Part shown: one piece after another, positions 38,224 through 64,000 of the stretch | Position numbering within the stretch: the first letter of the stretch is position 1 | How the letters are laid out: each line of letters opens with the position of its first letter | Source: Centroberyx gerrardi | Lineage: Eukaryota; Chordata; Actinopteri; Beryciformes; Berycidae | Reading direction: 5' to 3' | Length of the DNA: 64,000 bases | Assembly: GCF_048128805.1 (NCBI RefSeq) | Contig: NC_136001.1 | Span: 7,364,501-7,428,500, forward strand | The notes under the pieces: generated by a model | What the model saw: only the letters and a program-made list of their open reading frames with translations | The model's database searches: none | Told to the model about the DNA's origin: nothing | Made by a program: the position numbers and the translations under genes

Positions 38224-39225
38224 CACATCTGTATGTATGTCTGGCAGCAAGAGGCCATTTGTTCTAGTCATAGATTAAAACCACAGTATGCCATTATGAT
38301 CCATGGTTTCCTCCTACCCAGGCAGTTTTCCACGGGATTGTACCATGTTTCTGTTTTTGGATAGCTAGCCGGCTGGATGTATGTGAGGTAATGAGGGTGC
38401 AGTGATCCAGGAGGCGGGACACAAAGCCCAGGACATTACCACGGCAAACCGCAGTATTTACAGCTGCAGCTGGAGATTCAAGGCCAGAGCGCAGCAACTA
38501 CTCCTACTGCATTCTGCCTTGGATTTAGCTGGTTTTTTTGTTACTGCAAATTTGACATGCAGTTTTGTCTCAAACTAAACATAAATGAGCCAAAACAGTT
38601 TGTTACAAGATAAAACAGAGGCTGGTGAACAAAGTCTGATTCCAGTCTTAATTCAATTTTGACCAAACTTGTAGTTACTACATTTTGCCTTTGCACGTCA
38701 GTATTGCGTAAACATTTAATGAAACCTGATGCAAAGATTTCATCAGTATTCATGTATGTGACATGTAGCTGCTATGAAGCTCTTATTTACTCCATATGAT
38801 TGTGTTACACGTTTACATTTTAGACATTTAGCTGACACTAATCCAGAGCACCTTACAATGAGTGCAGCAGTAGAATGAGCTTTATTTATAGTTGAAAGCA
38901 TAGAATAACTCAATTTATAGAACCAAAGTCCTGGCTGGAGTGCTTAGATCATAGCACCACTGGGGAACCAAGAGGGATAACAATCATCGGCCCGGACTAT
39001 GGCCTGGAGGCATGGCGATGTAGCTCCCTTAGCAGCCTTGGGTTGTCAATGACATGAGCAGCAGAGCGAGTGGAGAGAGTGCTGGAGAAGGGCGACATGG
39101 GCTAATTTGGGGAAAGTGAATGCAAGGTGGGCTTAGGATGCTCAGGAAAGCCTTCCAGAGTTCATGAAGTGTCACCTTTTTTTTTTTAAATAAAGACCTC
39201 CTAATTGCAGTCTGTGGATGGGTGA

Positions 39226-41809
39226 TTACTGTATTCTCACTTTACACAACAGATACCTTTTCAAGTACCTCCTGAAAGTCTTGTCCCGTAGGCCATAGAT
39301 GATTGGACTAATGGATCGTGGCAGGATGTGTATAATAATATAGCAAGCAAAGAGGGAGTCCGCATAATGTTCAGGGAACCAGTACAGCAGAGCTTTTTTT
39401 AACACGGGGAGGGCATAGGTAGCCATACACAACAGCAGCTGAAATCCATGGAGGAGGATAGTTTTCTGGGCCTTCTTAGCATCGGTGCTTGCCTCCTTGG
39501 CAGTGAACAGGATCCTGAAGTAAGTGTAGAAGATAATGAGCCAAACTATGACTAGGAACACTATATAGGTGATATCCCTCTTCTTGATAATGGTGGGATT
39601 CCTGAAGACGGTTTCCCTGAGACAGAAGACTCGGGTATGAAAAAACTCCAGGGGTTCTGTGGCCAGGGCGACGAAGAGGTCGGGGAGGACAGACAACATG
39701 CTCGTCGCCCAGATCAGACCAATCAGCATGTGTGTTCTTTTGACTGTACAGATCTGCGCATGGCGGAGGGGGACGCAGACGGCAATGTAGCACTCTACCG
39801 CCATGCAGGCCAGGTTCAGAGGGGTGTTTTCGGTGGTGAAAAGAGCAAGCAGGATGGCACAGCAGCAGAGGGAGACATTTATTGTGTAGAGGGTGTAGCT
39901 GAGGAGGAATAGCATGATAGTGAGCATCAGCTGGATCATATCGTTGACCACCAGGTGAATGAAAAGGATGTAGCGAGGATTCATGTAGAAGATCTGGTTG
40001 GCGGGAATGAAGAGGAGAGGGGTATGGGGAGATGGAAGGAGAGGAGGATGGAGGGGAAAATTGAGAGAGGAGAGTGGGGAGGAAAGAAAATAGTTGAGTG
40101 GAGCAGAGTTCAGTAGAAGAGGGGCAAGGGCAAGACTAGAGAAAACAGCACATGGGAAGTGGGGAAAGGTGTAGAGAAAAGGGGAGTTTCTCCAAAGAAT
40201 CATCATTACAGAACATTGATGCTTTTTTTGGAAACCAAAATCTCTATGTTTTTGTACTGGATTTACATATTTCTAAGAGCACACATTGTAGTATCGTAAT
40301 TAAGTTTTCTCATTCTGACATAAATGGCATTTACTTGATCATTGCTGCAGTGTTTACAATGAACACATTAGCAAACATTGTACAGATTCAAAATATAGTG
40401 CATTTAATATTGACTTGACTAGTGCAGTGCCCGTTCAAAATGTGCTTGTCCGGAACGGGCCAATTGCTGCTTGCTGCTTTCTCGAGAACCGTGTGTGCCC
40501 GTACCGCTTGTATTCAAAGTTTAGTAATATTGAACGTGTCGCGTGTCCAAATTGCACCAAATCCGACACTGCACATCCTTGGGTCCCCAGCAATACACTC
40601 GCCAAGTGTGAAGTCGATCGGACGAACAGTTCTCGAGATATGCGAAGGACACACACACACTCACTCACAGACAGAGATTCCTCGAATTAGTAGATAGATG
40701 TTTACAATAACTTTATCCTTGTGCCGCTCCTTTATCAAGAGCTGACAATCACCCGCAGAAGCATTTATAGATGGACAATGCTTTTTCACCACTAGACCTA
40801 GGATTGGACTTGTAATACCTGAAAGGTGTGCTGCTAATTCTGGTGAATCAAACATTAGCTAGACACAGCACTCTTCTTCTTTCTGCCTGTAGTTTTACAG
40901 TGACTGTCCACTGACAACACCCACACTCCTTGCCAACGCTGTGCTCGTAAATTTTGGACGCTTCATGGGTGTGGAAATCGGTGTAGGCAAATTTGATGGT
41001 ATAGGACTTATCCTAGATAAATGCTCAACTGAACACAAACACTATTTTTTTTCAGATTTTTTTTTTTTTTTTATTATTATTTATTTCTAATTCCTAAATT
41101 ATTTTTTTCAAAAAAGTTAATATGGGTCATGGATGTTATTGTAGGCCTAACTCCTTGTTTTTCTATGTTGAGAATTGTCAGGTAATGATCATTTACATCC
41201 TGGTCCTCCTGCTAATAAATAAAATAAAGTGAATTTTAATTTGTGAAAAGATGCATCATACAAAATTGGATGTGTAGGAACAGTAATAATTATTTTTCCG
41301 CCATGCTCTGTCTGGTGGGACAGGTGGAACATCAAGGGGGATACTTCATGAACAGACATGAATCAAACTGACACCTGCTGTTCTACTTATTAATGCTTGC
41401 TTCAGACGCGTAAAATTTGCATGAAATAGACTTTAGTTCATCTTTTGGCACCGCCCTGTCAATGTTGAGCTTGGAATTTTTTGACGCTCACCTTCCCACA
41501 ATTTTCCACATAATCTCTACGCCTGCAAATTTGGCTGTTCAGTGGACACTCACTGTTAATCCAGCAGCAGAGGTGGTGGTGATATAAATATTAATTTCTG
41601 CCATATCTCCTCATTAAATTGATCATAAGGGGTTGGTTGACAGTGAAGGAATGTCAAACCTGATGTTTGCGGAAGGTGTGAATGAGACTGGCATTGATGT
41701 AGTTGATGGAGATGCCGAGAGCCACAACAACCACATTTTTGGTCACAGCTGTGGCGAAGGAGTCTCGATATTGTATAACCACTGTTACATTGGCAGATGA
41801 CACGTTCAT
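39226..41809 (-). CDS. Odorant receptor 131-2-like, gene D1
   Basis: Exons are 41660-41809 (ATG at 41809; 50 codons) and 39226-39993, in phase 0, giving 305 residues. The donor CAG|GTTTGA follows HTFRKHQ, and the acceptor CCAACCAG precedes IFYMNPRYIL. NVS (2-4) and NVT (7-9) are glycosylation sequons. Cys93 and loop-2 Cys174 can pair. MAVECYIAVC starts at 114, DAKKAQKTILLHG precedes TM6, YALPVL (243-248) lies in TM6, and SPIIYGLRD (279-287) ends TM7. The large exon is open 71 codons further upstream, through the pyrimidine tract to an ATG at 40206. That extension is intron, because the other genes all splice here. The intron of 1.67 kb carries a dispersed repeat. D1 differs from D2 mainly by AVC for AIC and KRYLL for KTYLL. 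Confidence 0.95.
39994..40190 (-). other. Long polypurine/polypyrimidine tract at the D acceptor
   Basis: Nearly all purine on the plus strand (for example 'gaagaggagaggggtatggg'), so it is a very long pyrimidine tract on the transcribed strand ending at the exon 2 acceptor. It is repeated in all D genes, and shorter versions occur in A and B. Confidence 0.8.
40417..40700 (+). repeat. Dispersed repeat in the D1 coding intron, short form
   Basis: Starts at about 'actagtgcagtgcccgttc' and ends 'attagtagatagatg', a LINE/SINE-like tail. Contains one copy of the 72-bp segment that is present twice in the long form (M2, M4). The short form looks like a recombination product between those copies. 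Family not identified. Confidence 0.65.
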
Positions 41810-43270
41810 CTCTTGGAAGCTGAAGTTGAAGTCTAACAAAAGAGAGACAACGTAATATTCATCAACTATCATGAGAAACATTAACCCAAATATGCAACTT
41901 GTATGCAACATTATAGAGTTGCTATAAGTAATGTCATCATTTATTTACCATTGATCATATATTTATCATTGACTGGTTGAATACCATATTATATAACAGT
42001 AGTTACAATAATTATACAACAAATGCAATAATTCTATACAAAAATACACAACATAATCACACTTAGTAAACTGAGGAAGAACTCTTGGCTGGGTGGCATT
42101 GCACATTGTGGAAAAATGTGTGGAAAAATCTCATGCAAATTTTAGATAACGTACAATAAACACTTTAGGAATAACTTCAGTTACATTATCAGGTTCATCA
42201 TAGGCCTTTAGAGTGAGTCTTAGACATATACCATTAACAATTTGATCATGATAATTTCCACGCATGGTTATTTTTCAATAGTCTTTGCTATTTGCACCAC
42301 AATCGTTGGCTTCATTACAGCTTTGTTGAAAGTTGCATTTTTAAAACTACTGGGCACTTTTCGACATTGTGGAACCGCTGGATGAATTCAATTTTGTTAG
42401 AGAGCCTTCCGTCCTCCTTACCAGGCCCACTCAATGATAAGAGCACAAGAAAGTAGTACTCACCTCAGGCAGAAGATCAGGGCATCAACTTGAAAGATAA
42501 AAATCAATATAATATTTTGAAAATACAATTAAAATAACCACAGTAGTGGAAAGAACAACATGAACGGCCCTTTTTTAATCATCATTATTTTCAGTGTGGT
42601 TCCAATTTCCACTTCATTCAGTTCATTGTTTTGACACTTTGTCTTGAAACTGTGAAGGTGAGGCTGAGTAAGAATTCCAAAACGATATCCATTTTGGGAA
42701 GGAAGTTCATCATTGATTATAGATGATCAGTCTGTAAAACTAGTATTATTTTCAACCAAGGACTTACAAGAAGTTACCTAAGATCCTTTAAAAAGCATCA
42801 TAATTATTTTCAACTTTTTGCTTTCAATTGTCAAGCTATTGTGATGTTTTTCAAATGGTGGAGATCTCAGTTTCAGAATGCTGTGCTGGGAGTGTGGATG
42901 AGGGAAGTGCCTCAGGACTGATAATAACATGGATTTCAAAATACAAATTATCCTGCAACAGGAGAAAAGACAAATCTCAGAAAAAAAAAAAAAAACACAC
43001 TAGAGTAAGATAGGATCATGTAGCCATAACCAGCATGTTTGCTGCCACACATGGACAATGCACACCTCAGGTAAAGACCAACCTGGTGATATACATCATC
43101 AGTCAAGTCAGACTATACATTATCGGTCAAGTCAGAATATGATAAGGAAATATGAATGAGTTGATGAAAATGTATTTCACTATCATAGCATTGCAGCACT
43201 TCATTCAACTCTATTGTGACATTCCTCTGTGGCTATATGACTGTAGTGAAAGTTCACAGGTGGTACTTAC

Positions 43271-43350
43271 CTTAGTTAATGCAGTCAGACCAGGATGCCA
43301 ACGTGACATAACAGAGAGTGGCTCCAGAAAATCTATCAGATACTTTTATA
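43271..43350 (-). promoter_or_regulatory. TATA box and non-coding exon of gene D1
   Basis: TATAAAAG at 43343-43350 precedes an exon ending CTAAG at 43271 with donor GTAAGT. A second possible non-coding exon of about 25 nt (42464-42488) has acceptor TTTCAAG and donor GTGAGT. The ATG exon begins near 41832. A (TG)n tract and a hAT element lie directly upstream of the TATA box. Confidence 0.7.
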
Positions 43351-43438
43351 TGTGCTGGGGTTGGCAAACATCTAAGGATACAGGGGTGTGTGTATACATG
43401 TGTAGGTGTAGGTGTGAATGCATGCAGGTGGGTAGTAG

Positions 43439-43439
<1 letters not shown>

Positions 43440-43482
<43 letters not shown>
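43440..43482. repeat. (TG)n microsatellite upstream of D1
   Basis: Uninterrupted TG repeat about 90 bp upstream of the TATA box. Counterparts occur at about 49960-49990, 56093-56135 and 62612-62642. The long-type monomers have a shorter run. Confidence 0.9.
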
Positions 43483-43485
<3 letters not shown>

Positions 43486-43522
43486 TGTGCGTGCGTGCAT
43501 GGATGTATGGTTGTGTACACAT

Positions 43523-44242
43523 TAGGGCTGTCAAAATTGGCCAAAAATGACGTTCCATTATTCCTTCTAAAAAAACACATAGGTTCGAACCATTCGAATA
43601 TCTATTTTTGCGCATTATGTCCATAAGAGGGCAAACCAATACAATGAGAGACATAACTACTTGTATAGGTATATACAAGTCTCTCTCTCTCTCTCGCTCT
43701 CTCTCTCTGCGCCGTGGTTGGTGCTAGAGTGAGAACTGAGAACGCGCTGTCTCTCGGAGCAAGATCAAATGAATGATTCGTAATTGATATGTTATTCGAT
43801 AGCCTAATTTTTATACAGGTTAGGTAATATTCATACTGGTTTAAATAAACAATTTGATACAACTTTATCTCGAGGTTCCACAATTTTGCCGTCTGACCAA
43901 AATCCGAAGTATTTCCAAACAGGGCTTTTTAGATTGCTCGGAGGGGGTTGTGAACTCTCTGCCATCATTACCACACGGTTGTTGTTGAATTATTCGCTCG
44001 TTTCAGCTTGACCTATATTTCATTTTCAATCAATGAAAGTGACGTTGTGTGACTTCTGTCCATCATGCAGTGCATTCAGTGCAGCGGCCCAGGCCCACGC
44101 AAGAACTCGCGAGGCGGACAGCTGCGGTAGTGCTGCTTTTTTTTTTTTTTCACAATCGAATATTAATTTTCATAATCGAATGTCTGTTTTTTTTTACAAT
44201 TCGATTATATAATCGAATTTAGAATATTCGTTGACAGCCCTA
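43523..44242. mobile_element. Non-autonomous hAT element upstream of D1 (720 bp)
   Basis: Ends TAGGGCTGTCAA and TTGACAGCCCTA are inverted repeats. The 8-bp flanks GTACACAT (43515-43522) and GTACGCAT (44243-44250) form a target duplication with one mismatch. Internal AATCGAAT-type words recur near the right end. No transposase frame. It starts about 170 bp upstream of the D1 TATA box. Confidence 0.9.
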
Positions 44243-45323
44243 GTACGCATGCACATGGGTCCGTGTGTGTGTGCTCACACTATCTGCCTTATTGACTCTG
44301 ACTCTCCAGCCATAGCATAGAGCTGTAGTTTGAGTTGAAAATGATATTTAACTTTGATACGATGTTCATATCTTTCATCACACTTACATATGTGGACATG
44401 AACAACCATGGAAATCACAGGAGGTAGATGATCTATAGTCATTTTCTGTCTATTGTTTCCAATAATTGCAACCAGGCAAAATTATACAATTTCTTACTGA
44501 GAACATAAACACAAACTTAATTTGTATTTGTATTACCACGGCAGACCGCAGTATTTACAGCTGCAGCTGGAGATTCAAGGCCAGAGCGCAGCAACTACTC
44601 CTACTGCATTCTGCCTTGGATTTAGCTGGGTTTTTTTGTTACTGCAAATTTGACATGCAGTTTTGTCTCAAACTAAACATAAATGAGCCAAAACAGTTTG
44701 TTACAAGATAAAACAGAGGCTGGTGAACAAAGTCGGTTTCCAGTCTTAATTCAATTTTGACCAAACTTGTAGTTACTACATTTTGCCTTTGCACGTCAGT
44801 ATTGCGTAAACATTTAATGAAACCTGATGCAAAGATTTCATCAGTATTCATGTATGTGACATGTAGCTGCTATGAAGCTCTTATTTACTCCATATGATTG
44901 TGTTACACGTTTACATTTTAGACATTTAGCTGACACTAATCCAGAGCACCTTACAATGAGTGCAGCAGTAGAATGAGCTTTATTTATAGTTGAAAGCAAA
45001 GAATAACTCTATTTATAGAACCAAAGTCCTGACTGGAGTGCTTAGATCATAGCACCACTGGGGAGCCAAGAGGGATAACAATCATCGGCCCGGACTATGG
45101 CCTGGAGGCATGGCGATGTAGCTCCCTTAGCAGCCTTGGGTTGTCAATGACATGAGCAGCAGAGCGAGTGGAGAGAGTGCTGGAGAAGGGCGACATGGGC
45201 TAATTTGGGGAAAGTGAATGCAAGGTGGGCTTAGGATGCTCAGGAAAGCCTTCCAGAGTTCATGAAGTGTCACCTTTTTTTTTTTAAATAAAGACCTCCT
45301 AATTGCAGTCTGTGGATGGGTGA

Positions 45324-48300
45324 TTACTGTATTCTCACTTTACACAACAGATACGTTTTCAGGTACCTCCTGAAAGTCTTGTCCCGTAGGCCATAGATGA
45401 TTGGACTAATGGATCGTGGCAGGATGTGTATAATAATATAGCAAGCAAAGAGGGAGTCCGCATAATGTTCAGGGAACCAGTACAGCAGAGCTTTTTTTAA
45501 CACGGGGAGGGCATAGGTAGCCATACACAACAGCAGCTGAAATCCATGAAGGAGGATAGTTTTCTGGGCCTTCTTAGCATCGGTGCTTGCCTCCTTGGCA
45601 GTGAACAGGATCCTGAAGTAAGTGTAGAAGATAATGAGCCAAACTATGACTAGGAACACTATATAGGTGATATCCCTCTTCTTGATAATGGTGGGATTCC
45701 TGAAGACGGTTTCCCTGAGACAGAAGACTCGGGTATGAAAAAACTCCAGGGGTTCTGTGGCCAGGGCGACGAAGAGGTCGGGGAGGACAGACAACATGCT
45801 CGTCGCCCAGATCAGACCAATCAGCATGTGTGTTCTTTTGACTGTACAGATCTGCGCATGGCGGAGGGGGACGCAGATGGCAATGTAGCACTCTACCGCC
45901 ATGCAGGCCAGGTTCAGAGGGGTGTTTTCGGTGGTGAAAAGAGCAAGCAGGATGGCACAGCAGCAGAGGGAGACATTTATTGTGTAGAGGGTGTAGCTGA
46001 GGAGGAATAGCATGATAGTGAGCATCAGCTGGATCATATCGTTGACCACCAGGTGAATGAAAAGGATGTAGCGAGGATTCATGTAGAAGATCTGGTTGGC
46101 GGGAATGAAGAGGAGAGGGGTATGGGGAGATGGAAGGAGAGGAGGATGGAGGGGAAAATTGAGAGAGGAGAGTGGGGAGGAAAGAAAATAGTTGAGTGGA
46201 GCAGAGTTCAGTAGAAGAGGGGCAAGGGCAAGACTAGAGAAAACAGCACATGGGAAGTGGGGAAAGGTGTAGAGAAAAGGGGAGTTTCTCCAAAGAATCA
46301 TCATTACAGAACATTGATGCTTTTTTTGGAAACCAAAATCTCTATGTTTTTGTACTGGATTTACATATTTCTAAGAGCACACATTGTAGTATCGTAATTA
46401 AGTTTTCTCATTCTGACATAAATGGCAATTACTTGAGTCATTGCTGCAGTGTTTACAATGAACACATTAGCAAACATTGTACAGATTCAAAATATAGTGC
46501 ATTTAATATTGACTTGACTAGTGCAGTGCCCGTTCAAAACGTGCCTGTCCGGAACGGGCCGATTGCTGCTTGCTGCTTTCTCGAGAACTGCTCGTGCCCG
46601 TAGTGCTGCTTTCTCGAGAATCGCGTGTGCCCGTACCGCTTGAGCCCCGCTGCCGCACAGAGCGCTGTCCGCTTGTTTATTCAAAGTTTAGTAATATTGA
46701 ACGTGTCGCGTGTCCAAATTGCACCAAATCCGACACTGCACGTCCTTGGGTCCCCAGTCCCCAGACTTCACCAGTGAGACTAAACTGCGCTTGAACCGTA
46801 GAAGCAGTTTACGGCCTTCCATTGGTTGATTCTGCTGCCAATCAAACGTGTCTGCGCTCCTATTGGCTAGTTTTACTGCCTCCGCCTCTGTTATTTTCTC
46901 CTGTGTGTGCTCGTTCTTCTCTCTCGGGCATGAGCGGGGCGCGTGCCTTTGTCCCGCTCAGCCAGTCAGAGCCCTGAAGCCCCCCCCCCCGCTGCACTCA
47001 GACACAGAGCTGAGAGGCTCGCTGTTCGCTTGTTTAGTCGGTTTATTAATATTGAACGTGTCACGTGTCCAAATTGCACCAAATCCGACACTGCACATCC
47101 TTGGGTCCCCAGCAATACACTCGCCAAGTGTGAAGTCGATCGGACGAACGGTTCTCGAGATATGCGAAGGACACACACACATACACACACACTCACTCAC
47201 AGACAGAGATTCCTCGAATTAGATAGATGTTTACCATAACTTTATCCTTGTGCCGCTCCTTTATCAAGAGCTGGCAATCACCCGCAGAAGCATTTATAGA
47301 TGGACAATGCTTTTTCACCACTAGACCTAGGATTGGACTTTTAATACCTGAAAGGTGTGCTGCTAATTCTGGTGAATCAAACATTAGCTAGACACAGCAC
47401 TCTTCTTCTTTCTGCCTGTAGTTTTACAGTGACTGTCCACTGACAACACCCACACTCCTTGCCAACGCTGTGCTCGTAAATTTTGGACGCTTCATGGGTG
47501 TGGAAATAATCGGTGTAGGAAAATTTGATGGTATAGGACTTATCCTAGATAAATGCTCAACTGAACACAAACACTATTTTTTTTTTCAGATTTTTTTATT
47601 TTTTATTATTATTTATTTCCAATTCCTACATTTTTTTTTTCAAAAAAGGTAATATGGGTCATGGATGTTATTGTAGGCCTAACTCCTTGTTTTTCTATGT
47701 TGAGAATTGTCAGGTAATGGTCATTTACATCCTGGTCCTCCTGCTAATAAATAAAATAAAGTGAATTTTAATTTGTGAAAAGATGCATCATACAAAATTG
47801 GATGTGTAGGAACAGTAATAATTATTTTTCCTCCATGCTCTGTCTGGTGGGACAGGTGGAACATCAAGGGGGATACTTCATGAACAGACATGAATCAAAC
47901 TGACACCTGCTGTTCTACTTATTAATGCTTGCTTCAGACGTGTAAAATTTGCATGAAATAGACTTTAGTTCATCTTTTGGCACCGCCCTGTCAATGTTGA
48001 GCTTGGAATTTTTTGACGCTCACCTTCCCACAATTTTCCACATAATCTCTACGCCTGCAAATTTGGCTGTTCAGTGGACACTCACTGTTAATCCAGCAGC
48101 AGAGGTGGTGGTGATATAAATATTAATTTCTGCCATATCTCCTCATTAAATTGATCATAAGTGGTTGGTTGACAGTGAAGGAATGTCAAACCTGATGTTT
48201 GCGGAAGGTGTGAATGAGACTGGCATTGATGTAGTTGATGGAGATGCCGAGAGCCACAACAACCACATTTTTGGTCACAGCTGTGGCGAAGGAGTCTCGA

Positions 48301-48341
48301 TATTGTATAACCACTGTTACATTGGCAGATGACACGTTCAT
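45324..48341 (-). CDS. Odorant receptor 131-2-like, gene D2
   Basis: Exons are 48192-48341 (ATG at 48341) and 45324-46091, giving 305 residues with all receptor hallmarks listed for D1. The C-terminus reads KTYLLCKVRIQ, where D1 and D3 have KRYLL. TM6 carries YALPVL. The coding intron is longer than in D1 because it holds the long form of the dispersed repeat. The predicted protein is identical to D4. Confidence 0.95.
46514..47229 (+). repeat. Dispersed repeat in the D2 coding intron, long form
   Basis: About 716 bp. Two direct copies of a 72-bp segment ('gtttattaatattgaacgtg' type) lie at 46686-46757 and 47041-47112, with GC-rich DNA and a C-run (46980-46990) between. It ends in a TAGA-type tail. 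A copy is at 59171-59881, and short forms lie at 40417-40700 and 53069-53352. Confidence 0.7.
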
Positions 48342-49789
48342 CTCTTGGAAGCTGAAGTTGAAGTCTAACAAAAGAGAGACAACGTAATATTCATCAACTA
48401 TCATAAGAAACATTAACCCAAATATGCAACTTGTATGCAACATTATAGAGTTGCTATAAGTAATGTCATCATTTATTTACCATTGATCATATATTTATCA
48501 TTGACTGGTTGAATACCATATTATATAACAGTAGTTACAATAATTATACAACAAATGCAATAATTCTATACAATAATACACAACATAATCACACTTAGTA
48601 AACTGAGGAAGAACTCTTGGCTGGGTGGCATTGCACATTGTGGAAAAATCTCATGCGAATTTTAGATAACGTACAATAAACACTTTAGGAATAACTTCAG
48701 TTACATTATCAGGTTCATCATAGGCCTTTAGAGTGAGTCTTAGACATATACCATTAACAATTTGATCATGATAATTTCCACGCATGGTTATTTTTCAATA
48801 GTCTTTGCTATTTGCACCACAATCGTTGGCTTCATTACAGCTTTGTTGAAAGTTGCATTTTTAAAACTACTGGGCACTTTTCGACATTGTGGAACCGCTG
48901 GATGAATTCAATTTTGTTAGAGAGCCTTCCGTCCTCCTTACCAGGCCCACTCAATGACAAGAGCACAAGAAAGTAGTACTCACCTCAGGCAGAAGATCAG
49001 GGCATCAACTTGAAAGATAAAAATCAATATAATATTTTGAAAATACAGTTAAAATAACCACAGTAGTGGAAAGAACAACATGAACGGCCCTTTTTTAATC
49101 ATCATTATTTTCAGTGTGGTTCCAATTTCCACTTCATTCAGTTCATTGTTTTGACACTTTGTCTTGAAACTGTGAAGGTGAGGCTGAGTAAGAATTCCAA
49201 AACGATATCCATTTTGGGAAGGAAGTTCATCATTGATTATAGATGATCAGTCTGTAAAACTAGTATTATTTTCAACCAAGGACTTACAAGAAGTTACCTA
49301 AGATCCTTTAAAAAGCATCATAATTATTTTCAACTTTTTGCTTTCAATTGTCAAGCTATTGTGATGTTTTTCAAATGGTGGAGATCTCAGTTTCAGAATG
49401 CTGTGCTGGGAGTGTGGATGAGGGAAGTGCCTCAGGACTGATAATAACATGGATTTCAAAATACAAATTATCCTGCAACAGGAGAAAAGACAAATCTCAG
49501 AAAAAAAAAAAAAACACACTAGAGTAAGATAGGATCATGTAGCCATAACCAGCATGTTTGCTGCCACACATGGACAATGCACACCTCAGGTAAAGACCAA
49601 CCTGGTGATATACATCATCAGTCAAGTCAGAATATACATTATCGGTCAAGTCAGAATATGATAAGGAAATATGAATGAGTTGATGAAAATGTATTTCACT
49701 ATCATAGCATTGCAGCACTTCATTCAACTCTATTGTGACATTCCTCTGTGGCTATATGACTGTAGTGAAAGTTCACAGGTGGTACTTAC

Positions 49790-49869: not shown

Positions 49870-49957
49870 TGTGCTGGGGTTGGCAAACATCTAAGGATAC
49901 AGGGGTGTGTGTATACATGTGTAGGTGTAGGTGTGAATGCATACAGGTGGGTAGTAG

Positions 49958-49994
<37 letters not shown>

Positions 49995-51877: not shown

Positions 51878-54462
51878 TTACTGTATGCTCACTTTACACA
51901 ACAGATACCTTTTCAGGTACCTCCTGAAAGTCTTGTCCCGTAGGCCATAGATGATTGGACTAATGGATCGTGGCAGGATGTGTATAATAATATAGCAAGC
52001 AAAGAGGGAGTCCGCATAATGTTCAGGGAACCAGTACAGCAGAGCTTTTTTTAACAGGGGGCCTGCATAGGTAGCCATACACAACAGCAGCTGAAATCCA
52101 TGGAGGAGGATAGTTTTCTGGGCCTTCTTAGCATCGGTGCTTGCCTCCTTGGCAGTGAACAGGATCCTGAAGTAAGTGTAGAAGATAATGAGCCAAACTA
52201 TGACTAGGAACACTATATAGGTGATATCCCTCTTCTTGATAATGGTGGGATTCCTGAAGACGGTTTCCCTGAGACAGAAGACTCGGGTATGAAAAAACTC
52301 CAGGGGTTCTGTGGCCAGGGCGATGAAGAGGTCGGGGAGGACAGACAACATGCTCGTCGCCCAGATCAGACCAATCAGCATGTGTGTTCTTTTGACTGTA
52401 CAGATCTGCGCATGGCGGAGGGGGACGCAGATGGCAATGTAGCACTCTACCGCCATGCAGGCCAGGTTCAGAGGGGTGTTTTCGGTGGTGAAAAGAGCAA
52501 GCAGGATGGCACAGCAGCAGAGGGAGACATTTATTGTGTAGAGGGTGTAGCTGAGGAGGAATAGCATGATAGTGAGCATCAGCTGGATCATATCGTTGAC
52601 CACCAGGTGAATGAAAAGGATGTAGCGAGGATTCATGTAGAAGATCTGGTTGGCGGGAATGAAGAGGAGAGGGGTATGGGGAGATGGAAGGAGAGGAGGA
52701 TGGAGGGGAAAATTGAGAGAGGAGAGTGGGGAGGAAAGAAAATAGTTGAGTGGAGCAGAGTTCAGTAGAAGAGGGGCAAGGGCAAGACTAGAGAAAACAG
52801 CACATGGGAAGTGGGGAAAGGTGTAGAGAAAAGGGGAGTTTCTCCAAAGAATCATCATTACAGAACATTGATGCTTTTTTTGGAAACCAAAATCTCTATG
52901 TTTTTGTACTGGATTTACATATTTCTAAGAGCACACATTGTAGTATCGTAATTAAGTTTTCTCATTCTGACATAAATGGCATTTACTTGATCATTGCTGC
53001 AGTGTTTACAATGAACACATTAGCAAACATTGTACAGATTCAAAATATAGTGCATTTAATATTGACTTGACTAGTGCAGTGCCCGTTCAAAATGTGCTTG
53101 TCCGGAACGGGCCAATTGCTGCTTGCTGCTTTCTCGAGAACCGTGTGTGCCCGTACCGCTTGTATTCAAAGTTTAGTAATATTGAACGTGTCGCGTGTCC
53201 AAATTGCACCAAATCCGACACTGCACGTCCTTGGGTCCCCAGCAATACACTCGCCAAGTGTGAAGTCGATCGGACGAACAGTTCTCGAGATATGCGAAGG
53301 ACACACACACACTCACTCACAGACAGAGATTCCTCGAATTAGTAGATAGATGTTTACAATAACTTTATCCTTGTGCCGCTCCTTTATCAAGAGCTGACAA
53401 TCACCCGCAGAAGCATTTATAGATGGACAATGCTTTTTCACCACTAGACCTAGGATTGGACTTGTAATACCTGAAAGGTGTGCTGCTAATTCTGGTGAAT
53501 CAAACATTAGCTAGACACAGCACTCTTCTTCTTTCTGCCTGTAGTTTTACAGTGACTGTCCACTGACAACACCCACACTCCTTGCCAACGCTGTGCTCGT
53601 AAATTTTGGACGCTTCATGGGTGTGGAAATCGGTGTAGGCAAATTTGATGGTATAGGACTTATCCTAGATAAATGCTCAACTGAACACAAACACTATTTT
53701 TTTTCAGATTTTTTTTTTTTTTGTATTATTATTTATTTCTAATTCCTAAATTATTTTTTTTCAAAAAAGTTAATATGGGTCATGGATGTTATTGTAGGCC
53801 TAACTCCTTGTTTTTCTATGTTGAGAATTGTCAGGTAATGATCATTTACATCCTGGTCCTCCTGCTAATAAATAAAATAAAGTGAATTTTAATTTGTGAA
53901 AAGATGCATCATACAAAATTGGATGTGTAGGAACAGTAATAATTATTTTTCCGCCATGCTCTGTCTGGTGGGACAGGTGGAACATCAAGGGGGATACTTC
54001 ATGAACAGACATGAATCAAACTGACACCTGCTGTTCTACTTATTAATGCTTGCTTCAGACGCGTAAAATTTGCATGAAATAGACTTTAGTTCATCTTTTG
54101 GCACCGCCCTGTCAATGTTGAGCTTGGAATTTTTTGACGCTCACCTTCCCACAATTTTCCACATAATCTCTACGCCTGCAAATTTGGCTGTTCAGTGGAC
54201 ACTCACTGTTAATCCAGCAGCAGAGGTGGTGGTGATATAAATATTAATTTCTGCCATATCTCCTCATTAAATTGATCATAAGGGGTTGGTTGACAGTGAA
54301 GGAATGTCAAACCTGATGTTTGCGGAAGGTGTGAATGAGACTGGCATTGATGTAGTTGATGGAGATGCCGAGAGCCACAACAACCACATTTTTGGTCACA
54401 GCTGTGGCGAAGGAGTCTCGATATTGTATAACCACTGTTACATTGGCAGATGACACGTTCAT
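51878..54462 (-). CDS. Odorant receptor 131-2-like, gene D3
   Basis: Exons are 54313-54462 (ATG at 54462) and 51878-52645, giving 305 residues. It has the D-type hallmarks. TM6 reads YAGPLL where the other D genes have YALPVL, which agrees with the GP of A and B. It also has LFIAL for LFVAL and ends CKVSIQ. Its exon 2 and 3' flank differ from D1 more than their shared monomer type would suggest. Confidence 0.95.
53069..53352 (+). repeat. Dispersed repeat in the D3 coding intron, short form
   Basis: Same as 40417-40700, with one 72-bp segment. Confidence 0.65.
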
Positions 54463-55923
54463 CTCTTGGAAGCTGAAGTTGAAGTCTAACAAAAGAGAGA
54501 CAACGTAATATTCATCAACTATCATGAGAAACATTAACCCAAATATGCAACTTGTATGCAACATTATAGAGTTGCTATAAGTAATGTCATCATTTATTTA
54601 CCATTGATCATATATTTATCATTGACTGGTTGAATACCATATTATATAACAGTAGTTACAATAATTATACAACAAATGCAATAATTCTATACAAAAATAC
54701 ACAACATAATCACACTTAGTAAACTGAGGAAGAACTCTTGGCTGGGTGGCATTGCACATTGTGGAAAAATGTGTGGAAAAATCTCATGCAAATTTTAGAT
54801 AACGTACAATAAACACTTTAGGAATAACTTCAGTTACATTATCAGGTTCATCATAGGCCTTTAGAGTGAGTCTTAGACATATACCATTAACAATTTGATC
54901 ATGATAATTTCCACGCATGGTTATTTTTCAATAGTCTTTGCTATTTGCACCACAATCGTTGGCTTCATTACAGCTTTGTTGAAAGTTGCATTTTTAAAAC
55001 TACTGGGCACTTTTCGACATTGTGGAACCGCTGGATGAATTCAATTTTGTTAGAGAGCCTTCCGTCCTCCTTACCAGGCCCACTCAATGATAAGAGCACA
55101 AGAAAGTAGTACTCACCTCAGGCAGAAGATCAGGGCATCAACTTGAAAGATAAAAATCAATATAATATTTTGAAAATACAATTAAAATAACCACAGTAGT
55201 GGAAAGAACAACATGAACGGCCCTTTTTTAATCATCATTATTTTCAGTGTGGTTCCAATTTCCACTTCATTCAGTTCATTGTTTTGACACTTTGTCTTGA
55301 AACTGTGAAGGTGAGGCTGAGTAAGAATTCCAAAACGATATCCATTTTGGGAAGGAAGTTCATCATTGATTATAGATGATCAGTCTGTAAAACTAGTATT
55401 ATTTTCAACCAAGGACTTACAAGAAGTTACCTAAGATCCTTTAAAAAGCATCATAATTATTTTCAACTTTTTGCTTTCAATTGTCAAGCTATTGTGATGT
55501 TTTTCAAATGGTGGAGATCTCAGTTTCAGAATGCTGTGCTGGGAGTGTGGATGAGGGAAGTGCCTCAGGACTGATAATAACATGGATTTCAAAATACAAA
55601 TTATCCTGCAACAGGAGAAAAGACAAATCTCAGAAAAAAAAAAAAAAACACACTAGAGTAAGATAGGATCATGTAGCCATAACCAGCATGTTTGCTGCCA
55701 CACATGGACAATGCACACCTCAGGTAAAGACCAACCTGGTGATATACATCATCAGTCAAGTCAGACTATACATTATCGGTCAAGTCAGAATATGATAAGG
55801 AAATATGAATGAGTTGATGAAAATGTATTTCACTATCATAGCATTGCAGCACTTCATTCAACTCTATTGTGACATTCCTCTGTGGCTATATGACTGTAGT
55901 GAAAGTTCACAGGTGGTACTTAC

Positions 55924-56003
55924 CTTAGTTAATGCAGTCAGACCAGGATGCCAACGTGACATAACAGAGAGTGGCTCCAGAAAATCTATCAGATACTTTT
56001 ATA
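55924..56003 (-). promoter_or_regulatory. TATA box and non-coding exon of gene D3
   Basis: TATAAAAG at 55996-56003, exon end at 55924 with donor GTAAGT. Confidence 0.7.
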
Positions 56004-56091
56004 TGTGCTGGGGTTGGCAAACATCTAAGGATACAGGGGTGTGTGTATACATGTGTAGGTGTAGGTGTGAATGCATGCAGGTGGGTAGTAG

Positions 56092-56138
<47 letters not shown>

Positions 56139-56175
56139 TGTGCGTGCGTGCATGGATGTATGGTTGTGTACACAT

Positions 56176-56895
56176 TAGGGCTGTCAAAATTGGCCAAAAA
56201 TGACGTTCCATTATTCCTTCTAAAAAAACACATAGGTTCGAACCATTCGAATATCTATTTTTGCGCATTATGTCCATAAGAGGGCAAACCAATACAATGA
56301 GAGACATAACTACTTGTATAGGTATATACAAGTCTCTCTCTCTCTCTCGCTCTCTCTCTCTGCGCCGTGGTTGGTGCTAGAGTGAGAACTGAGAACGCGC
56401 TGTCTCTCGGAGCAAGATCAAATGAATGATTCGTAATTGATATGTTATTCGATAGCCTAATTTTTATACAGGTTAGGTAATATTCATACTGGTTTAAATA
56501 AACAATTTGATACAACTTTATCTCGAGGTTCCACAATTTTGCCGTCTGACCAAAATCCGAAGTATTTCCAAACAGGGCTTTTTAGATTGCTCGGAGGGGG
56601 TTGTGAACTCTCTGCCATCATTACCACACGGTTGTTGTTGAATTATTCGCTCGTTTCAGCTTGACCTATATTTCATTTTCAATCAATGAAAGTGACGTTG
56701 TGTGACTTCTGTCCATCATGCAGTGCATTCAGTGCAGCGGCCCAGGCCCACGCAAGAACTCGCGAGGCGGACAGCTGCGGTAGTGCTGCTTTTTTTTTTT
56801 TTTCACAATCGAATATTAATTTTCATAATCGAATGTCTGTTTTTTTTTACAATTCGATTATATAATCGAATTTAGAATATTCGTTGACAGCCCTA
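56176..56895. mobile_element. Non-autonomous hAT element upstream of D3 (720 bp)
   Basis: Short form, equal in length to the one at 43523-44242, with the same flanking 8-bp words. Confidence 0.9.
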
Positions 56896-57976
56896 GTACG
56901 CATGCACATGGGTCCGTGTGTGTGTGCTCACACTATCTGCCTTATTGACTCTGACTCTCCAGCCATAGCATAGAGCTGTAGTTTGAGTTGAAAATGATAT
57001 TTAACTTTGATACGATGTTCATATCTTTCATCACACTTACATATGTGGACATGAACAACCATGGAAATCACAGGAGGTAGATGATCTATAGTCATTTTCT
57101 GTCTATTGTTTCCAATAATTGCAACCAGGCAAAATTATACAATTTCTTACTGAGAACATAAACACAAACTTAATTTGTATTTGTATTACCACGGCAGACC
57201 GCAGTATTTACAGCTGCAGCTGGAGATTCAAGGCCAGAGCGCAGCAACTACTCCTACTGCATTCTGCCTTGGATTTAGCTGGGTTTTTTTGTTACTGCAA
57301 ATTTGACATGCAGTTTTGTCTCAAACTAAACATAAATGAGCCAAAACAGTTTGTTACAAGATAAAACAGAGGCTGGTGAACAAAGTCGGTTTCCAGTCTT
57401 AATTCAATTTTGACCAAACTTGTAGTTACTACATTTTGCCTTTGCACGTCAGTATTGCGTAAACATTTAATGAAACCTGATGCAAAGATTTCATCAGTAT
57501 TCATGTATGTGACATGTAGCTGCTATGAAGCTCTTATTTACTCCATATGATTGTGTTACACGTTTACATTTTAGACATTTAGCTGACACTAATCCAGAGC
57601 ACCTTACAATGAGTGCAGCAGTAGAATGAGCTTTATTTATAGTTGAAAGCAAAGAATAACTCTATTTATAGAACCAAAGTCCTGACTGGAGTGCTTAGAT
57701 CATAGCACCACTGGGGAGCCAAGAGGGATAACAATCATCGGCCCGGACTATGGCCTGGAGGCATGGCGATGTAGCTCCCTTAGCAGCCTTGGGTTGTCAA
57801 TGACATGAGCAGCAGAGCGAGTGGAGAGAGTGCTGGAGAAGGGCGACATGGGCTAATTTGGGGAAAGTGAATGCAAGGTGGGCTTAGGATGCTCAGGAAA
57901 GCCTTCCAGAGTTCATGAAGTGTCACCTTTTTTTTTTTAAATAAAGACCTCCTAATTGCAGTCTGTGGATGGGTGA

Positions 57977-60900
57977 TTACTGTATTCTCACTTTACACAA
58001 CAGATACGTTTTCAGGTACCTCCTGAAAGTCTTGTCCCGTAGGCCATAGATGATTGGACTAATGGATCGTGGCAGGATGTGTATAATAATATAGCAAGCA
58101 AAGAGGGAGTCCGCATAATGTTCAGGGAACCAGTACAGCAGAGCTTTTTTTAACACGGGGAGGGCATAGGTAGCCATACACAACAGCAGCTGAAATCCAT
58201 GAAGGAGGATAGTTTTCTGGGCCTTCTTAGCATCGGTGCTTGCCTCCTTGGCAGTGAACAGGATCCTGAAGTAAGTGTAGAAGATAATGAGCCAAACTAT
58301 GACTAGGAACACTATATAGGTGATATCCCTCTTCTTGATAATGGTGGGATTCCTGAAGACGGTTTCCCTGAGACAGAAGACTCGGGTATGAAAAAACTCC
58401 AGGGGTTCTGTGGCCAGGGCGACGAAGAGGTCGGGGAGGACAGACAACATGCTCGTCGCCCAGATCAGACCAATCAGCATGTGTGTTCTTTTGACTGTAC
58501 AGATCTGCGCATGGCGGAGGGGGACGCAGATGGCAATGTAGCACTCTACCGCCATGCAGGCCAGGTTCAGAGGGGTGTTTTCGGTGGTGAAAAGAGCAAG
58601 CAGGATGGCACAGCAGCAGAGGGAGACATTTATTGTGTAGAGGGTGTAGCTGAGGAGGAATAGCATGATAGTGAGCATCAGCTGGATCATATCGTTGACC
58701 ACCAGGTGAATGAAAAGGATGTAGCGAGGATTCATGTAGAAGATCTGGTTGGCGGGAATGAAGAGGAGAGGGGTATGGGGAGATGGAAGGAGAGGAGGAT
58801 GGAGGGGAAAATTGAGAGAGGAGAGTGGGGAGGAAAGAAAATAGTTGAGTGGAGCAGAGTTCAGTAGAAGAGGGGCAAGGGCAAGACTAGAGAAAACAGC
58901 ACATGGGAAGTGGGGAAAGGTGTAGAGAAAAGGGGAGTTTCTCCAAAGAATCATCATTACAGAACATTGATGCTTTTTTTGGAAACCAAAATCTCTATGT
59001 TTTTGTACTGGATTTACATATTTCTAAGAGCACACATTGTAGTATCGTAATTAAGTTTTCTCATTCTGACATAAATGGCAATTACTTGAGTCATTGCTGC
59101 AGTGTTTACAATGAACACATTAGCAAACATTGTACAGATTCAAAATATAGTGCATTTAATATTGACTTGACTAGTGCAGTGCCCGTTCAAAACGTGCCTG
59201 TCCGGAACGGGCCGATTGCTGCTTGCTGCTTTCTCGAGAACTGCTCGTGCCCGTAGTGCTGCTTTCTCGAGAATCGCGTGTGCCCGTACCGCTTGAGCCC
59301 CGCTGCCGCACAGAGCGCTGTCCGCTTGTTTATTCAAAGTTTAGTAATATTGAACGTGTCGCGTGTCCAAATTGCACCAAATCCGACACTGCACGTCCTT
59401 GGGTCCCCAGTCCCCAGACTTCACCAGTGAGACTAAACTGCGCTTGAACCGTAGAAGCAGTTTACGGCCTTCCATTGGTTGATTCTGCTGCCAATCAAAC
59501 GTGTCTGCGCTCCTATTGGCTAGTTTTACTGCCTCCGCCTCTGTTATTTTCTCCTGTGTGTGCTCGTTCTTCTCTCTCGGGCATGAGCGGGGCGCGTGCC
59601 TTTGTCCCGCTCAGCCAGTCAGAGCCCTGAAGCCCCCCCCCCGCTGCACTCAGACACAGAGCTGAGAGGCTCGCTGTTCGCTTGTTTAGTCGGTTTATTA
59701 ATATTGAACGTGTCACGTGTCCAAATTGCACCAAATCCGACACTGCACATCCTTGGGTCCCCAGCAATACACTCGCCAAGTGTGAAGTCGATCGGACGAA
59801 CGGTTCTCGAGATATGCGAAGGACACACACACATACACACACACTCACTCACAGACAGAGATTCCTCGAATTAGATAGATGTTTACCATAACTTTATCCT
59901 TGTGCCGCTCCTTTATCAAGAGCTGGCAATCACCCGCAGAAGCATTTATAGATGGACAATGCTTTTTCACCACTAGACCTAGGATTGGACTTTTAATACC
60001 TGAAAGGTGTGCTGCTAATTCTGGTGAATCAAACATTAGCTAGACACAGCACTCTTCTTCTTTCTGCCTGTAGTTTTACAGTGACTGTCCACTGACAACA
60101 CCCACACTCCTTGCCAACGCTGTGCTCGTAAATTTTGGACGCTTCATGGGTGTGGAAATAATCGGTGTAGGAAAATTTGATGGTATAGGACTTATCCTAG
60201 ATAAATGCTCAACTGAACACAAACACTATTTTTTTTTTCAGATTTTTTTATTTTTTATTATTATTTATTTCCAATTCCTAAATTTTTTTTTTCAAAAAAG
60301 GTAATATGGGTCATGGATGTTATTGTAGGCCTAACTCCTTGTTTTTCTATGTTGAGAATTGTCAGGTAATGGTCATTTACATCCTGGTCCTCCTGCTAAT
60401 AAATAAAATAAAGTGAATTTTAATTTGTGAAAAGATGCATCATACAAAATTGGATGTGTAGGAACAGTAATAATTATTTTTCCTCCATGCTCTGTCTGGT
60501 GGGACAGGTGGAACATCAAGGGGGATACTTCATGAACAGACATGAATCAAACTGACACCTGCTGTTCTACTTATTAATGCTTGCTTCAGACGTGTAAAAT
60601 TTGCATGAAATAGACTTTAGTTCATCTTTTGGCACCGCCCTGTCAATGTTGAGCTTGGAATTTTTTGACGCTCACCTTCCCACAATTTTCCACATAATCT
60701 CTACGCCTGCAAATTTGGCTGTTCAGTGGACACTCACTGTTAATCCAGCAGCAGAGGTGGTGGTGATATAAATATTAATTTCTGCCATATCTCCTCATTA
60801 AATTGATCATAAGTGGTTGGTTGACAGTGAAGGAATGTCAAACCTGATGTTTGCGGAAGGTGTGAATGAGACTGGCATTGATGTAGTTGATGGAGATGCC

Positions 60901-60993
60901 GAGAGCCACAACAACCACATTTTTGGTCACAGCTGTGGCGAAGGAGTCTCGATATTGTATAACCACTGTTACATTGGCAGATGACACGTTCAT
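57977..60993 (-). CDS. Odorant receptor 131-2-like, gene D4
   Basis: Exons are 60844-60993 (ATG at 60993) and 57977-58744, giving 305 residues. The predicted protein is identical to D2, including KTYLLCKVRIQ and YALPVL. Intron, promoter and hAT neighbour also match D2. It is the second long-type member of the higher-order repeat. Confidence 0.95.
59171..59881 (+). repeat. Dispersed repeat in the D4 coding intron, long form
   Basis: Same as 46514-47229, with two 72-bp segments. The C-run is slightly shorter here. Confidence 0.7.
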
Positions 60994-62441
60994 CTCTTGG
61001 AAGCTGAAGTTGAAGTCTAACAAAAGAGAGACAACGTAATATTCATCAACTATCATAAGAAACATTAACCCAAATATGCAACTTGTATGCAACATTATAG
61101 AGTTGCTATAAGTAATGTCATCATTTATTTACCATTGATCATATATTTATCATTGACTGGTTGAATACCATATTATATAACAGTAGTTACAATAATTATA
61201 CAACAAATGCAATAATTCTATACAATAATACACAACATAATCACACTTAGTAAACTGAGGAAGAACTCTTGGCTGGGTGGCATTGCACATTGTGGAAAAA
61301 TCTCATGCGAATTTTAGATAACGTACAATAAACACTTTAGGAATAACTTCAGTTACATTATCAGGTTCATCATAGGCCTTTAGAGTGAGTCTTAGACATA
61401 TACCATTAACAATTTGATCATGATAATTTCCACGCATGGTTATTTTTCAATAGTCTTTGCTATTTGCACCACAATCGTTGGCTTCATTACAGCTTTGTTG
61501 AAAGTTGCATTTTTAAAACTACTGGGCACTTTTCGACATTGTGGAACCGCTGGATGAATTCAATTTTGTTAGAGAGCCTTCCGTCCTCCTTACCAGGCCC
61601 ACTCAATGACAAGAGCACAAGAAAGTAGTACTCACCTCAGGCAGAAGATCAGGGCATCAACTTGAAAGATAAAAATCAATATAATATTTTGAAAATACAG
61701 TTAAAATAACCACAGTAGTGGAAAGAACAACATGAACGGCCCTTTTTTAATCATCATTATTTTCAGTGTGGTTCCAATTTCCACTTCATTCAGTTCATTG
61801 TTTTGACACTTTGTCTTGAAACTGTGAAGGTGAGGCTGAGTAAGAATTCCAAAACGATATCCATTTTGGGAAGGAAGTTCATCATTGATTATAGATGATC
61901 AGTCTGTAAAACTAGTATTATTTTCAACCAAGGACTTACAAGAAGTTACCTAAGATCCTTTAAAAAGCATCATAATTATTTTCAACTTTTTGCTTTCAAT
62001 TGTCAAGCTATTGTGATGTTTTTCAAATGGTGGAGATCTCAGTTTCAGAATGCTGTGCTGGGAGTGTGGATGAGGGAAGTGCCTCAGGACTGATAATAAC
62101 ATGGATTTCAAAATACAAATTATCCTGCAACAGGAGAAAAGACAAATCTCAGAAAAAAAAAAAAAACACACTAGAGTAAGATAGGATCATGTAGCCATAA
62201 CCAGCATGTTTGCTGCCACACATGGACAATGCACACCTCAGGTAAAGACCAACCTGGTGATATACATCATCAGTCAAGTCAGAATATACATTATCGGTCA
62301 AGTCAGAATATGATAAGGAAATATGAATGAGTTGATGAAAATGTATTTCACTATCATAGCATTGCAGCACTTCATTCAACTCTATTGTGACATTCCTCTG
62401 TGGCTATATGACTGTAGTGAAAGTTCACAGGTGGTACTTAC

Positions 62442-62521
62442 CTTAGTTAATGCAGTCAGACCAGGATGCCAACGTGACATAACAGAGAGTGGCTCCAGAA
62501 AATCTATCAGATACTTTTATA
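62442..62521 (-). promoter_or_regulatory. TATA box and non-coding exon of gene D4
   Basis: TATAAAAG at 62514-62521, exon end at 62442 with donor GTAAGT. Confidence 0.7.
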
Positions 62522-62609
62522 TGTGCTGGGGTTGGCAAACATCTAAGGATACAGGGGTGTGTGTATACATGTGTAGGTGTAGGTGTGAATGCATACAGGT
62601 GGGTAGTAG

Positions 62610-62646
<37 letters not shown>

Positions 62647-62675
62647 CGTGCATGGATGTATGGTTGTGTACACAT

Positions 62676-63451
62676 TAGGGCTGTCAAAATTGGCCAAAAA
62701 TGACGTTCCATTATTCCTTCTAAAAAAACACATAGGTTCGAACCATTCGAATATCTATTTTGGCGCATTATGTCCATAAGAGGGCAAACCAATACAACGA
62801 GAGACATAACTACTTGTATAGGTATATTTATTTCAACATAAACATGTCTTTTAAAAGATCTACATACCTACACATTACAAAATAAACAAATAAAATAATG
62901 TCCTATACCGTAAAACTTCATTTAAAGACCTCTCTCTCTCTCACTGAGGACGCGCTGTCTCTCGGAGCAAGATCAAATGAATGATTCGTAATTGATATGT
63001 TATTCGATAGCCTAATTTTTATACAGGTTAGGTAATATTCATACTGGTTTAAATAAACAATTTGATACAACTTTATCTCGAGGTTACACAATTTTGCCGT
63101 CTGACCAAAATCCGAAGTATTTCCAAACAGGGCTTTTTAGATTGCTCGGAGGGGGTTGTGAACTCTCTGCCATCATTACCACACGGTTGTTGTTGAATTA
63201 TTCGCTCGTTTCAGCTTGACCTATATTTCATTTTCAATCAATGAAAGTGACGTTGTGTGACTTCTGTCCATCATGCAGTGCATTCAGTGCAGCGGCCCAG
63301 GCCCACGCGAGAACTCGCGAGGCGGACAGCCGCGGTAGTGCTGCTTTTTTTTTTTTTTTCACAATCGAATATTAATTTTCATAATCGAATGTCTGTTTTT
63401 TTTTACAATTCGATTATATAATCGAATTTAGAATATTCGTTGACAGCCCTA
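62676..63451. mobile_element. Non-autonomous hAT element upstream of D4 (776 bp)
   Basis: Long form, equal in length to the one at 50024-50799, with the same flanking 8-bp words. Confidence 0.9.
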
Positions 63452-63738
63452 GTACGCATGCACATGGGTCCGTGTGTGTGTGCTCACACTATCTGCCTTA
63501 TTGACTCTGACTCTCCAGCCATAGCATAGAGCTGTAGTTTGAGTTGAAAATGATATTTAACTTTGATACGATGTTCATATCTTTCATCACACTTACATAT
63601 GTGGACATGAACAACCATGGAAATCACAGGAGGTAGATGATATAGTCATTTTCTGTCTATTGTTTCCAATAATTGCAACCAGGCAAAATTATACAATTTC
63701 TCACTGAGAACATAAACACAAACTTCATTTGTATTTGT

Positions 63739-64000
63739 ATAACCACGGCAGACAGCAGTATTTACAGCTGCAGCTGGAGATTCAAGGCCAGAGCGCAGCA
63801 ACTACTCCTACTGCATTCTGCCTTGGATTTAGCTGGTTTTTTTGTTACTGCAAATTTGACATGCAGTTTTGTCTCAAACTAAACATAAATGAGCCAAAAC
63901 AGTTTGTTACAAGATAAAACAGAGGCTGGTGAACAAAGTCGGTTTCCAGTCTTAATTCAATTTTGACCAAACTTGTAGTTTCTACATTTTGCCTTTGCAC
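63739..64000. repeat. Start of monomer M5, cut by the window edge
   Basis: This carries M3-type variants ('tataaccacggcagacagcag' and 'gtagtttctac'), so the alternation short-long-short-long continues. The next D gene should lie just beyond the window. Confidence 0.9.

What the first reader, a model, noticed from the sequence alone, without database searches (positions are those of the whole stretch)
38435..64000. Higher-order repeat built from two odorant receptor gene monomers
Monomers of 6097, 6555, 6098 and 6554 bp alternate short-long-short-long, so the 12,652-bp dimer is the recent unit of amplification. A fifth monomer of short type begins at 63739. Dimeric higher-order organisation is known from centromeric satellites. 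Here the repeated unit is a whole receptor gene with its own promoter.
Basis: seen in the sequence. Interest (0 to 1): 0.8.

Follow-up and report, generated by a model that had tools for sequence, protein, structure and literature searches.

The report
Irregular tandem array of fish receptor genes
A fish chromosome carries eleven nearly identical copies of a smell-receptor-like gene in a row; the neat short-long pairing seen at one end most likely comes from one recent unequal exchange and does not continue, so this is an ordinary, fast-changing gene family and not a satellite-like repeat of repeats.

Summary
The lengths are real: 6097, 6555, 6098, 6554 bp, and the first pair matches the next at 99.79%. 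The genome behind the window does not support the higher-order reading. The array has 11 units; the fifth is long (6628 bp), not short, and the sixth is a third size (7733 bp): S L S L L X L L L X X. No fixed period beats shuffling, a weak test with 11 units. The 12,652-bp 'dimer' looks like one out-of-register exchange: differences are dense up to M1+1345, then 5 substitutions and 2 one-base indels occur in 13.2 kb, then dense differences resume at M3+1895. M3 is thus a hybrid of M5's left and M1's right part. Other block copies have lags of about 20.9, 13.1 and 27.5 kb; a further two-gene copy lies left in the window. All 11 genes are open over 305 codons in two exons, with an intron place listed for spliced cichlid odorant receptors. 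The promoter is a sequence candidate only. Verdict: ordinary growth of a tandem receptor cluster by unequal exchange.

The parts
38435..44531 (-). unit M1 (short, 6097 bp), gene type A; left edge of the array
44532..51086 (-). unit M2 (long, 6555 bp), gene type B
51087..57184 (-). unit M3 (short, 6098 bp), gene type C; inferred recombinant of M5 (left) and M1 (right)
57185..63738 (-). unit M4 (long, 6554 bp), gene type B
63739..64000 (-). first 262 bases of unit M5 (long type, 6628 bp, C5:7428239-7434866); six more units follow outside the window, to C5:7477761
39226..39993 (-). M1 coding exon 2 with stop
41660..41809 (-). M1 coding exon 1 (50 codons, phase-0 donor)
45324..46091 (-). M2 coding exon 2
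48192..48341 (-). M2 coding exon 1
51878..52645 (-). M3 coding exon 2
54313..54462 (-). M3 coding exon 1
57977..58744 (-). M4 coding exon 2
60844..60993 (-). M4 coding exon 1
52433..52981 (.). interval in M3 in which the inferred exchange between M1-type and M5-type sequence lies (counterpart in M1: 39781-40329); covers the 5' part of exon 2 and the adjoining intron
   Evidence: last M1/M3 difference before the clean tract at +1345, first dense M3/M5 difference at +1895
43262..43354 (-). candidate TATA box (from 43351) and first-exon donor of M1; this 93-bp stretch is identical in all 11 units
   Evidence: sequence only
38881..38886 (-). candidate poly(A) signal AATAAA of M1

Best explanation
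This is an 11-unit, 74.8-kb tandem array of an odorant-receptor-like class A GPCR gene, all in one orientation, at the right end of a larger cluster of the same family. The first duplication joined unit end to unit start without visible homology. Later growth was by unequal homologous exchange (crossing over or break-induced copying) between misaligned units, in steps of two, three or four units at changing positions. The short-long-short-long run is one such step: M1 exchanged with the original third unit (now M5) inside a 549-bp interval at the 5' end of exon 2 and its intron, duplicating 12,652 bp and leaving M3 as a hybrid. Shown: unit lengths, gene models by sequence, the near-identical tract and its two edges. 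Inferred: the order of events, the exchange mechanism, that the genes are expressed, and that copy number varies between individuals.
For:: 11 array copies, all on C5; matches on other contigs cover only a dispersed repeat near bases 1969-2156 of the query or, once, its first 185 bases at 79% (40 of 1281 candidates scored); unit sizes; no N inside the array; along lag 12,652, 21 substitutions in M1+0..1345, then 5 substitutions and 2 one-base indels to M3+1894, then dense differences; Fisher p = 7e-18 for 21/1346 against 5/13,199; over the left 1800 bp M3 differs from M5 and M8 at 1 site each and from M1 at 21; from exon 1 to the TATA M3 differs from M1 at 0 and from M5 at 3 sites; other block copies at lags 20,908 (99.40%), 13,084 (99.34%) and 27,453 (98.28%); exact runs of 5888, 5023 and 3583 bp at lags 12,653, 13,093 and 20,914; the array's outer flanks share no letters with the unit ends at the joint; 11 of 11 genes open over 305 codons; same intron place in 9 of 9 paralogues to the left with a full-length exon 2.
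Against: One assembly only; copy number within near-identical tracts cannot be checked without reads. Inside the clean tract M3 still differs from M1 at +2140, +2636 and by a one-base indel at +2674, and from M5 at +558; these must be later mutations or errors. The right-half contrast is small (0 against 3 differences from exon 1 to the TATA). An in-register copy followed by conversion of M3's left end gives the same letters. In the 600-column bins, M8, M9 and M10 look mosaic too, so the full order of events is not resolved.
Confidence: 0.8

Rival explanations
1. A true dimeric higher-order repeat: the 12.65-kb short-long pair is the current unit of amplification, as in alpha satellite.
For: Two pairs in tandem; M2/M4 99.97% and M1/M3 99.62% against about 98.5% between neighbours in the global alignment.
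Against: M5 is long and M6 is a third size. Lag-2 matches, 3 of 9 for gene types (p 0.20) and 4 of 9 for sizes (p 0.36), are no better than shuffles (14 tests, 20,000 shuffles each, lowest p 0.065 at lag 5). Other block copies use other lags. Part of the 1.5% between neighbours is misaligned indels.
Confidence: 0.05
2. An exact in-register duplication of M1-M2, followed by gene conversion of the left 1.3-1.9 kb of M3 by a type-C unit.
For: M3's left part equals M5 and M8 almost exactly; its right part equals M1.
Against: Needs two events where one exchange suffices, and the converting unit would have to be of the type (M5 or M8) that a single exchange with M5 predicts.
Confidence: 0.13
3. Assembly error: haplotype copies or a miscounted repeat placed in tandem, so that M3-M4 are not a real extra pair.
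For: The clean tract differs by only 5 substitutions and 2 indels in 13.2 kb, a range in which assemblers can miscount copies; the left 15.8-kb-lag block is just as clean at its right end (1 mismatch in 8287).
Against: M3 is a specific hybrid; the array has no N and lies in a 37-Mb contig; one search found no array unit on another contig.
Confidence: 0.12

Closest known systems
Tandem fish OR gene clusters growing by tandem duplication (zebrafish subfamilies, PMC1325023, passages seen; recent low-Ks zebrafish duplicates enriched for olfactory receptor activity, PMC3464592, passages seen)
   Same: Contiguous subfamily members in the same orientation
   Different: Here the copies are 6-8-kb units 98-100% alike, and one recombinant unit is traced to a 549-bp interval
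Two-coding-exon cichlid OR family W (PMC4122780: abstract, sections 7 and 8, and passages seen)
   Same: Intron in phase 0 after codon 50; last codons code for His-Gln (here CAT.CAG; CAC.CAG at codon 50 in five W genes of Table 7)
   Different: Species unknown here; the TM3 motif reads ECY, and whether family W has that was not seen
Gene-borne higher-order repeats, NBPF/Olduvai triplets (PMC9584774, passages seen)
   Same: Repeated coding units with block copies more alike than neighbours
   Different: There 50 canonical three-unit copies in four genes; here two adjacent two-unit copies and no fixed period
Large human tandem arrays with unequal exchange inside higher-order repeats (PMC2588610, passages seen)
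   Same: Gain and loss of kb-sized units by unequal crossing over
   Different: The case described there is an LTR-derived unit of about 3.5 kb, not a receptor gene

Membership tests
Higher-order repeat (as used in PMC9584774) | Divergence between HOR copies under 5% | tested here: met
   The two pairs match at 99.79%
Higher-order repeat (as used in PMC9584774) | Neighbouring monomers diverge clearly more (20-40% in alpha satellite) | tested here: inconclusive
   Neighbours differ more than copies (about 98.5% against 99.6-99.97%) but by only about 1.5%, part of that misaligned indels
[quoted passage not shown]
   Two short-long pairs, then L and X units
Higher-order repeat (as used in PMC9584774) | Fixed multi-unit period along the array | tested here: not met
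   None of 14 lag tests beats shuffles (low power with 11 units); block copies at several different lags
Tandemly arrayed gene family grown by unequal exchange | Same-strand adjacent paralogues with block copies and a recombinant unit | tested here: met
   the exchange itself is inferred
Vertebrate odorant receptor (OR) | Class A seven-TM receptor | tested here: met
   Pfam 7tm_1 52.4 bits, cut-off 30.5 (M1 protein)
Vertebrate odorant receptor (OR) | Pfam 7tm_4 (olfactory receptor) above its cut-off | tested here: not met
   24.8 bits, cut-off 27 (M1 protein)
Vertebrate odorant receptor (OR) | MA[FY][DE]RYVAIC at TM3 (motif from PMC1325023) | tested here: not met
   MAVECYIA[VI]C in 11 of 11
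Vertebrate odorant receptor (OR) | N-terminal N-glycosylation site | tested here: met
   NVS and NVT within the first 9 residues (by sight)
Vertebrate odorant receptor (OR) | Expression in olfactory neurons | not testable with these tools
   No expression data
Two-coding-exon fish OR like cichlid family W | Intron phase 0 near codon 50 | tested here: met
   Exon 1 of 150 nt in 11 of 11; Table 7 of PMC4122780
Two-coding-exon fish OR like cichlid family W | Grouping with family W in a tree | not tested
   No fish protein collection was at hand; the label OR131-2-like is recalled only

The most novel reading that the evidence does not exclude
The long, variable intron between the first coding exon and the main receptor exon acts as a joint: exchanges between units re-pair promoters and first exons with different receptor exons, so the array makes new promoter-receptor pairings (M3 pairs a type-C receptor exon with M1's upstream half) as well as new copies.
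Probability: 0.12. Interest if true: 0.5.

Novelty: new member of a known kind. Interest (0 to 1): 0.28.

Why it matters
It shows why a repeat seen at a window's edge must be extended before it is called a higher-order repeat, and gives a clear example of one probable unequal exchange in a vertebrate receptor cluster with its breakpoint narrowed to 549 bp. The array is a good place to measure copy-number change between individuals.

Tried and rejected
Rejected: dimeric higher-order repeat. Rejected: high divergence of a 455-bp patch between M1 and M2 (40 mismatches); the letters printed show different indels that the aligner forced together. Rejected: a single-exon gene with an upstream in-frame start (the 326-aa ORFs); the upstream part looks like a pyrimidine-rich intron end, and exon 1 was found. 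Tried without result: conservation of the candidate promoter with the left paralogues; the hits lie at the CA-rich stretch and at another short low-complexity-like stretch of the query, none over the TATA or the donor. A simple EBF and homeodomain pattern scan of about 400 bp upstream of the M1 TATA found nothing. The long 'X' intron block is not explained by one insertion: it starts with a 288-bp dispersed repeat but shows no match to the S or L intron block at E 1e-5 apart from simple repeats (M6 against M1 and M2). No paper was found under 'odorant receptor 131-2' (0 papers); with shorter forms listed 12 of 26, one of them on zebrafish OR131-2. I make no claim that such an array is absent from print.

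Other papers: PMC10463633, abstract and outline seen; PMC2993934, passages seen, nothing used; [quoted passage not shown]

Full report
What is there. Self-comparison of the window confirms units beginning at 38435, 44532, 51087, 57185 and 63739, with lengths 6097, 6555, 6098 and 6554. M2 and M4 differ at 2 of 6554 aligned bases, M1 and M3 at 23 of 6097, while M1 and M2 differ at 86 of 6061 in a global alignment. Forty of those 86 sit in a 455-bp patch; the letters there show different indels that the aligner forced together, and three local alignments of M2 with M1 hold 48 mismatches. So the paired look is real, though neighbours are more alike than the raw count suggests.

Beyond the window. 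The window lies at C5:7364501-7428500 of a 779-Mb genome in 278 contigs. A search with the left 2156 bases of M1 finds 11 array copies, all on C5 (40 of 1281 candidates scored, so counts of weaker matches are lower bounds). Their sizes are 6097, 6555, 6098, 6554, 6628, 7733, 6553, 6540, 6554, 7718 and 7797 bp, ending at 7477761; there is no N inside the array. The fifth unit carries the long-type insertions, and M6, M10 and M11 have a different, longer intron block. In letters the sizes read S L S L L X L L L X X and the gene types A B C B C D B C B D E. Of 14 lag tests (7 lags, two strings, 20,000 shuffles each) none reaches p 0.05; lag 2 gives p 0.20 and 0.36, the lowest is 0.065 at lag 5. 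With 11 units the test is weak, but the order of sizes itself breaks the alternation at M5.

How the pair arose. Listing every difference along lag 12,652 gives 21 substitutions from M1+0 to M1+1345; then 5 substitutions and 2 one-base indels from M1+1346 through M2 to M3+1894; then dense differences, including 33- and 35-bp insertions, from M3+1895 on. The contrast 21/1346 against 5/13,199 has Fisher p = 7e-18. In window terms the exchange lies in 52433-52981 (M3; counterpart 39781-40329 in M1), across the 5' part of exon 2 and the adjoining intron. M3's left 1800 bp differ from M5 and M8 at 1 site each and from M1 at 21; from exon 1 to the TATA box M3 differs from M1 at 0 sites and from M5 at 3. 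An in-register copy plus conversion of M3's left end would give the same letters and needs one more event. Five substitutions in 13.2 kb between two copies is about 2e-4 per lineage; with recalled rates of 1e-8 to 2e-9 per site and generation that is some 20,000 to 100,000 generations.

Other steps. Block copies with other registers lie to the right: lag 20,908 (99.40% over 15.8 kb), 13,084 (99.34% over 11.9 kb) and 27,453 (98.28% over 17.0 kb). Three of the longest exact runs are 5888, 5023 and 3583 bp, at lags 12,653, 13,093 and 20,914. The left part of the window holds another two-gene block copy: C5:7357881-7372787 against 7373676-7388578, 29 differing columns, only one of them in the last 8287 bases. 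Copying two or more genes at once thus happened repeatedly in this cluster. At the outer edges of the array the flanks share no letters with the unit ends at the joint, so the first duplication shows no homology there.

The gene. Each unit has one gene on the minus strand: exon 1 of 50 codons, an intron of 1.7-3.3 kb, and exon 2 with the rest; 11 of 11 are open over 305 codons and make five different proteins. Nine of nine paralogues to the left with a full-length exon 2 have an exon-1 match upstream that ends at the same residue; further copies there are broken. The same intron place and phase, with last codons CAC.CAG, is listed for five two-exon cichlid ORs of family W (PMC4122780). A 93-bp stretch with a candidate TATA box and first-exon donor is identical in 11 of 11 units, and an AATAAA lies downstream of the stop in 11 of 11; it was not found in the left paralogues, and no transcript data were available. 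The M1 protein passes Pfam 7tm_1 but falls short of the olfactory-receptor model 7tm_4 (24.8 against 27 bits), and all 11 have ECY where ORs have [DE]RY. I therefore call it odorant-receptor-like and do not file it as a standard OR. Ten comparisons among the five protein types give dN/dS 0.30 to 1.53 on 4 to 22 nucleotide differences, too few to claim selection.

Judgement. [quoted passage not shown] here there are two adjacent pairs and then a change of register. The best account is an ordinary, young tandem receptor array growing by unequal exchange, with one well-bounded recombinant. Copy number rests on one assembly and needs reads. That the organism is a fish is inferred from the receptor type and the intron place; no call named it.

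Noticed in passing
window 1-8287 and 15792-24078: A second near-identical tandem block (1 mismatch in 8287 bp), part of a 14.9-kb two-gene copy at a lag of about 15.8 kb that starts left of the window.
   Followed up: partly
window 38435-64000 and 4897-34697, genes on the minus strand: All 11 array genes and the four other full-length receptor exons in the window read ECY at the TM3 motif and SPI[IV]Y in TM7, where class A receptors usually have [DE]RY and NPxxY (NPxxY recalled); a more distant copy at C5:7290666 has ERY.
   Followed up: no
   Followed up: no
G000 C101:11725-28928: A contig with four weak receptor matches spaced about 5.5 kb, perhaps a piece of another tandem array.
   Followed up: no
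M6+1815 to M6+4231 (C5:7436682-7439098): The intron of M6, M10 and M11 has a 2.4-kb block without a match in the S/L intron; it begins with a 288-bp dispersed repeat found on many contigs.
   Followed up: partly
window 40417-40590: Part of the intron of the S and L units is a dispersed repeat with copies on several contigs; the long units have a 33-bp repeat and a 355-bp insertion there, which make up most of the short/long difference.
   Followed up: partly
window 27800-31663 (-) and 15471-16517 (-): Retroelement-like reading frames (reverse transcriptase and zinc-finger/gag-like; LINE-like) lie between the receptor blocks (labels from recall).
   Followed up: no
G000 C5:7297501-7302500: Exactly 5000 N left of most of the cluster, a gap or a withheld stretch.
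   Followed up: no
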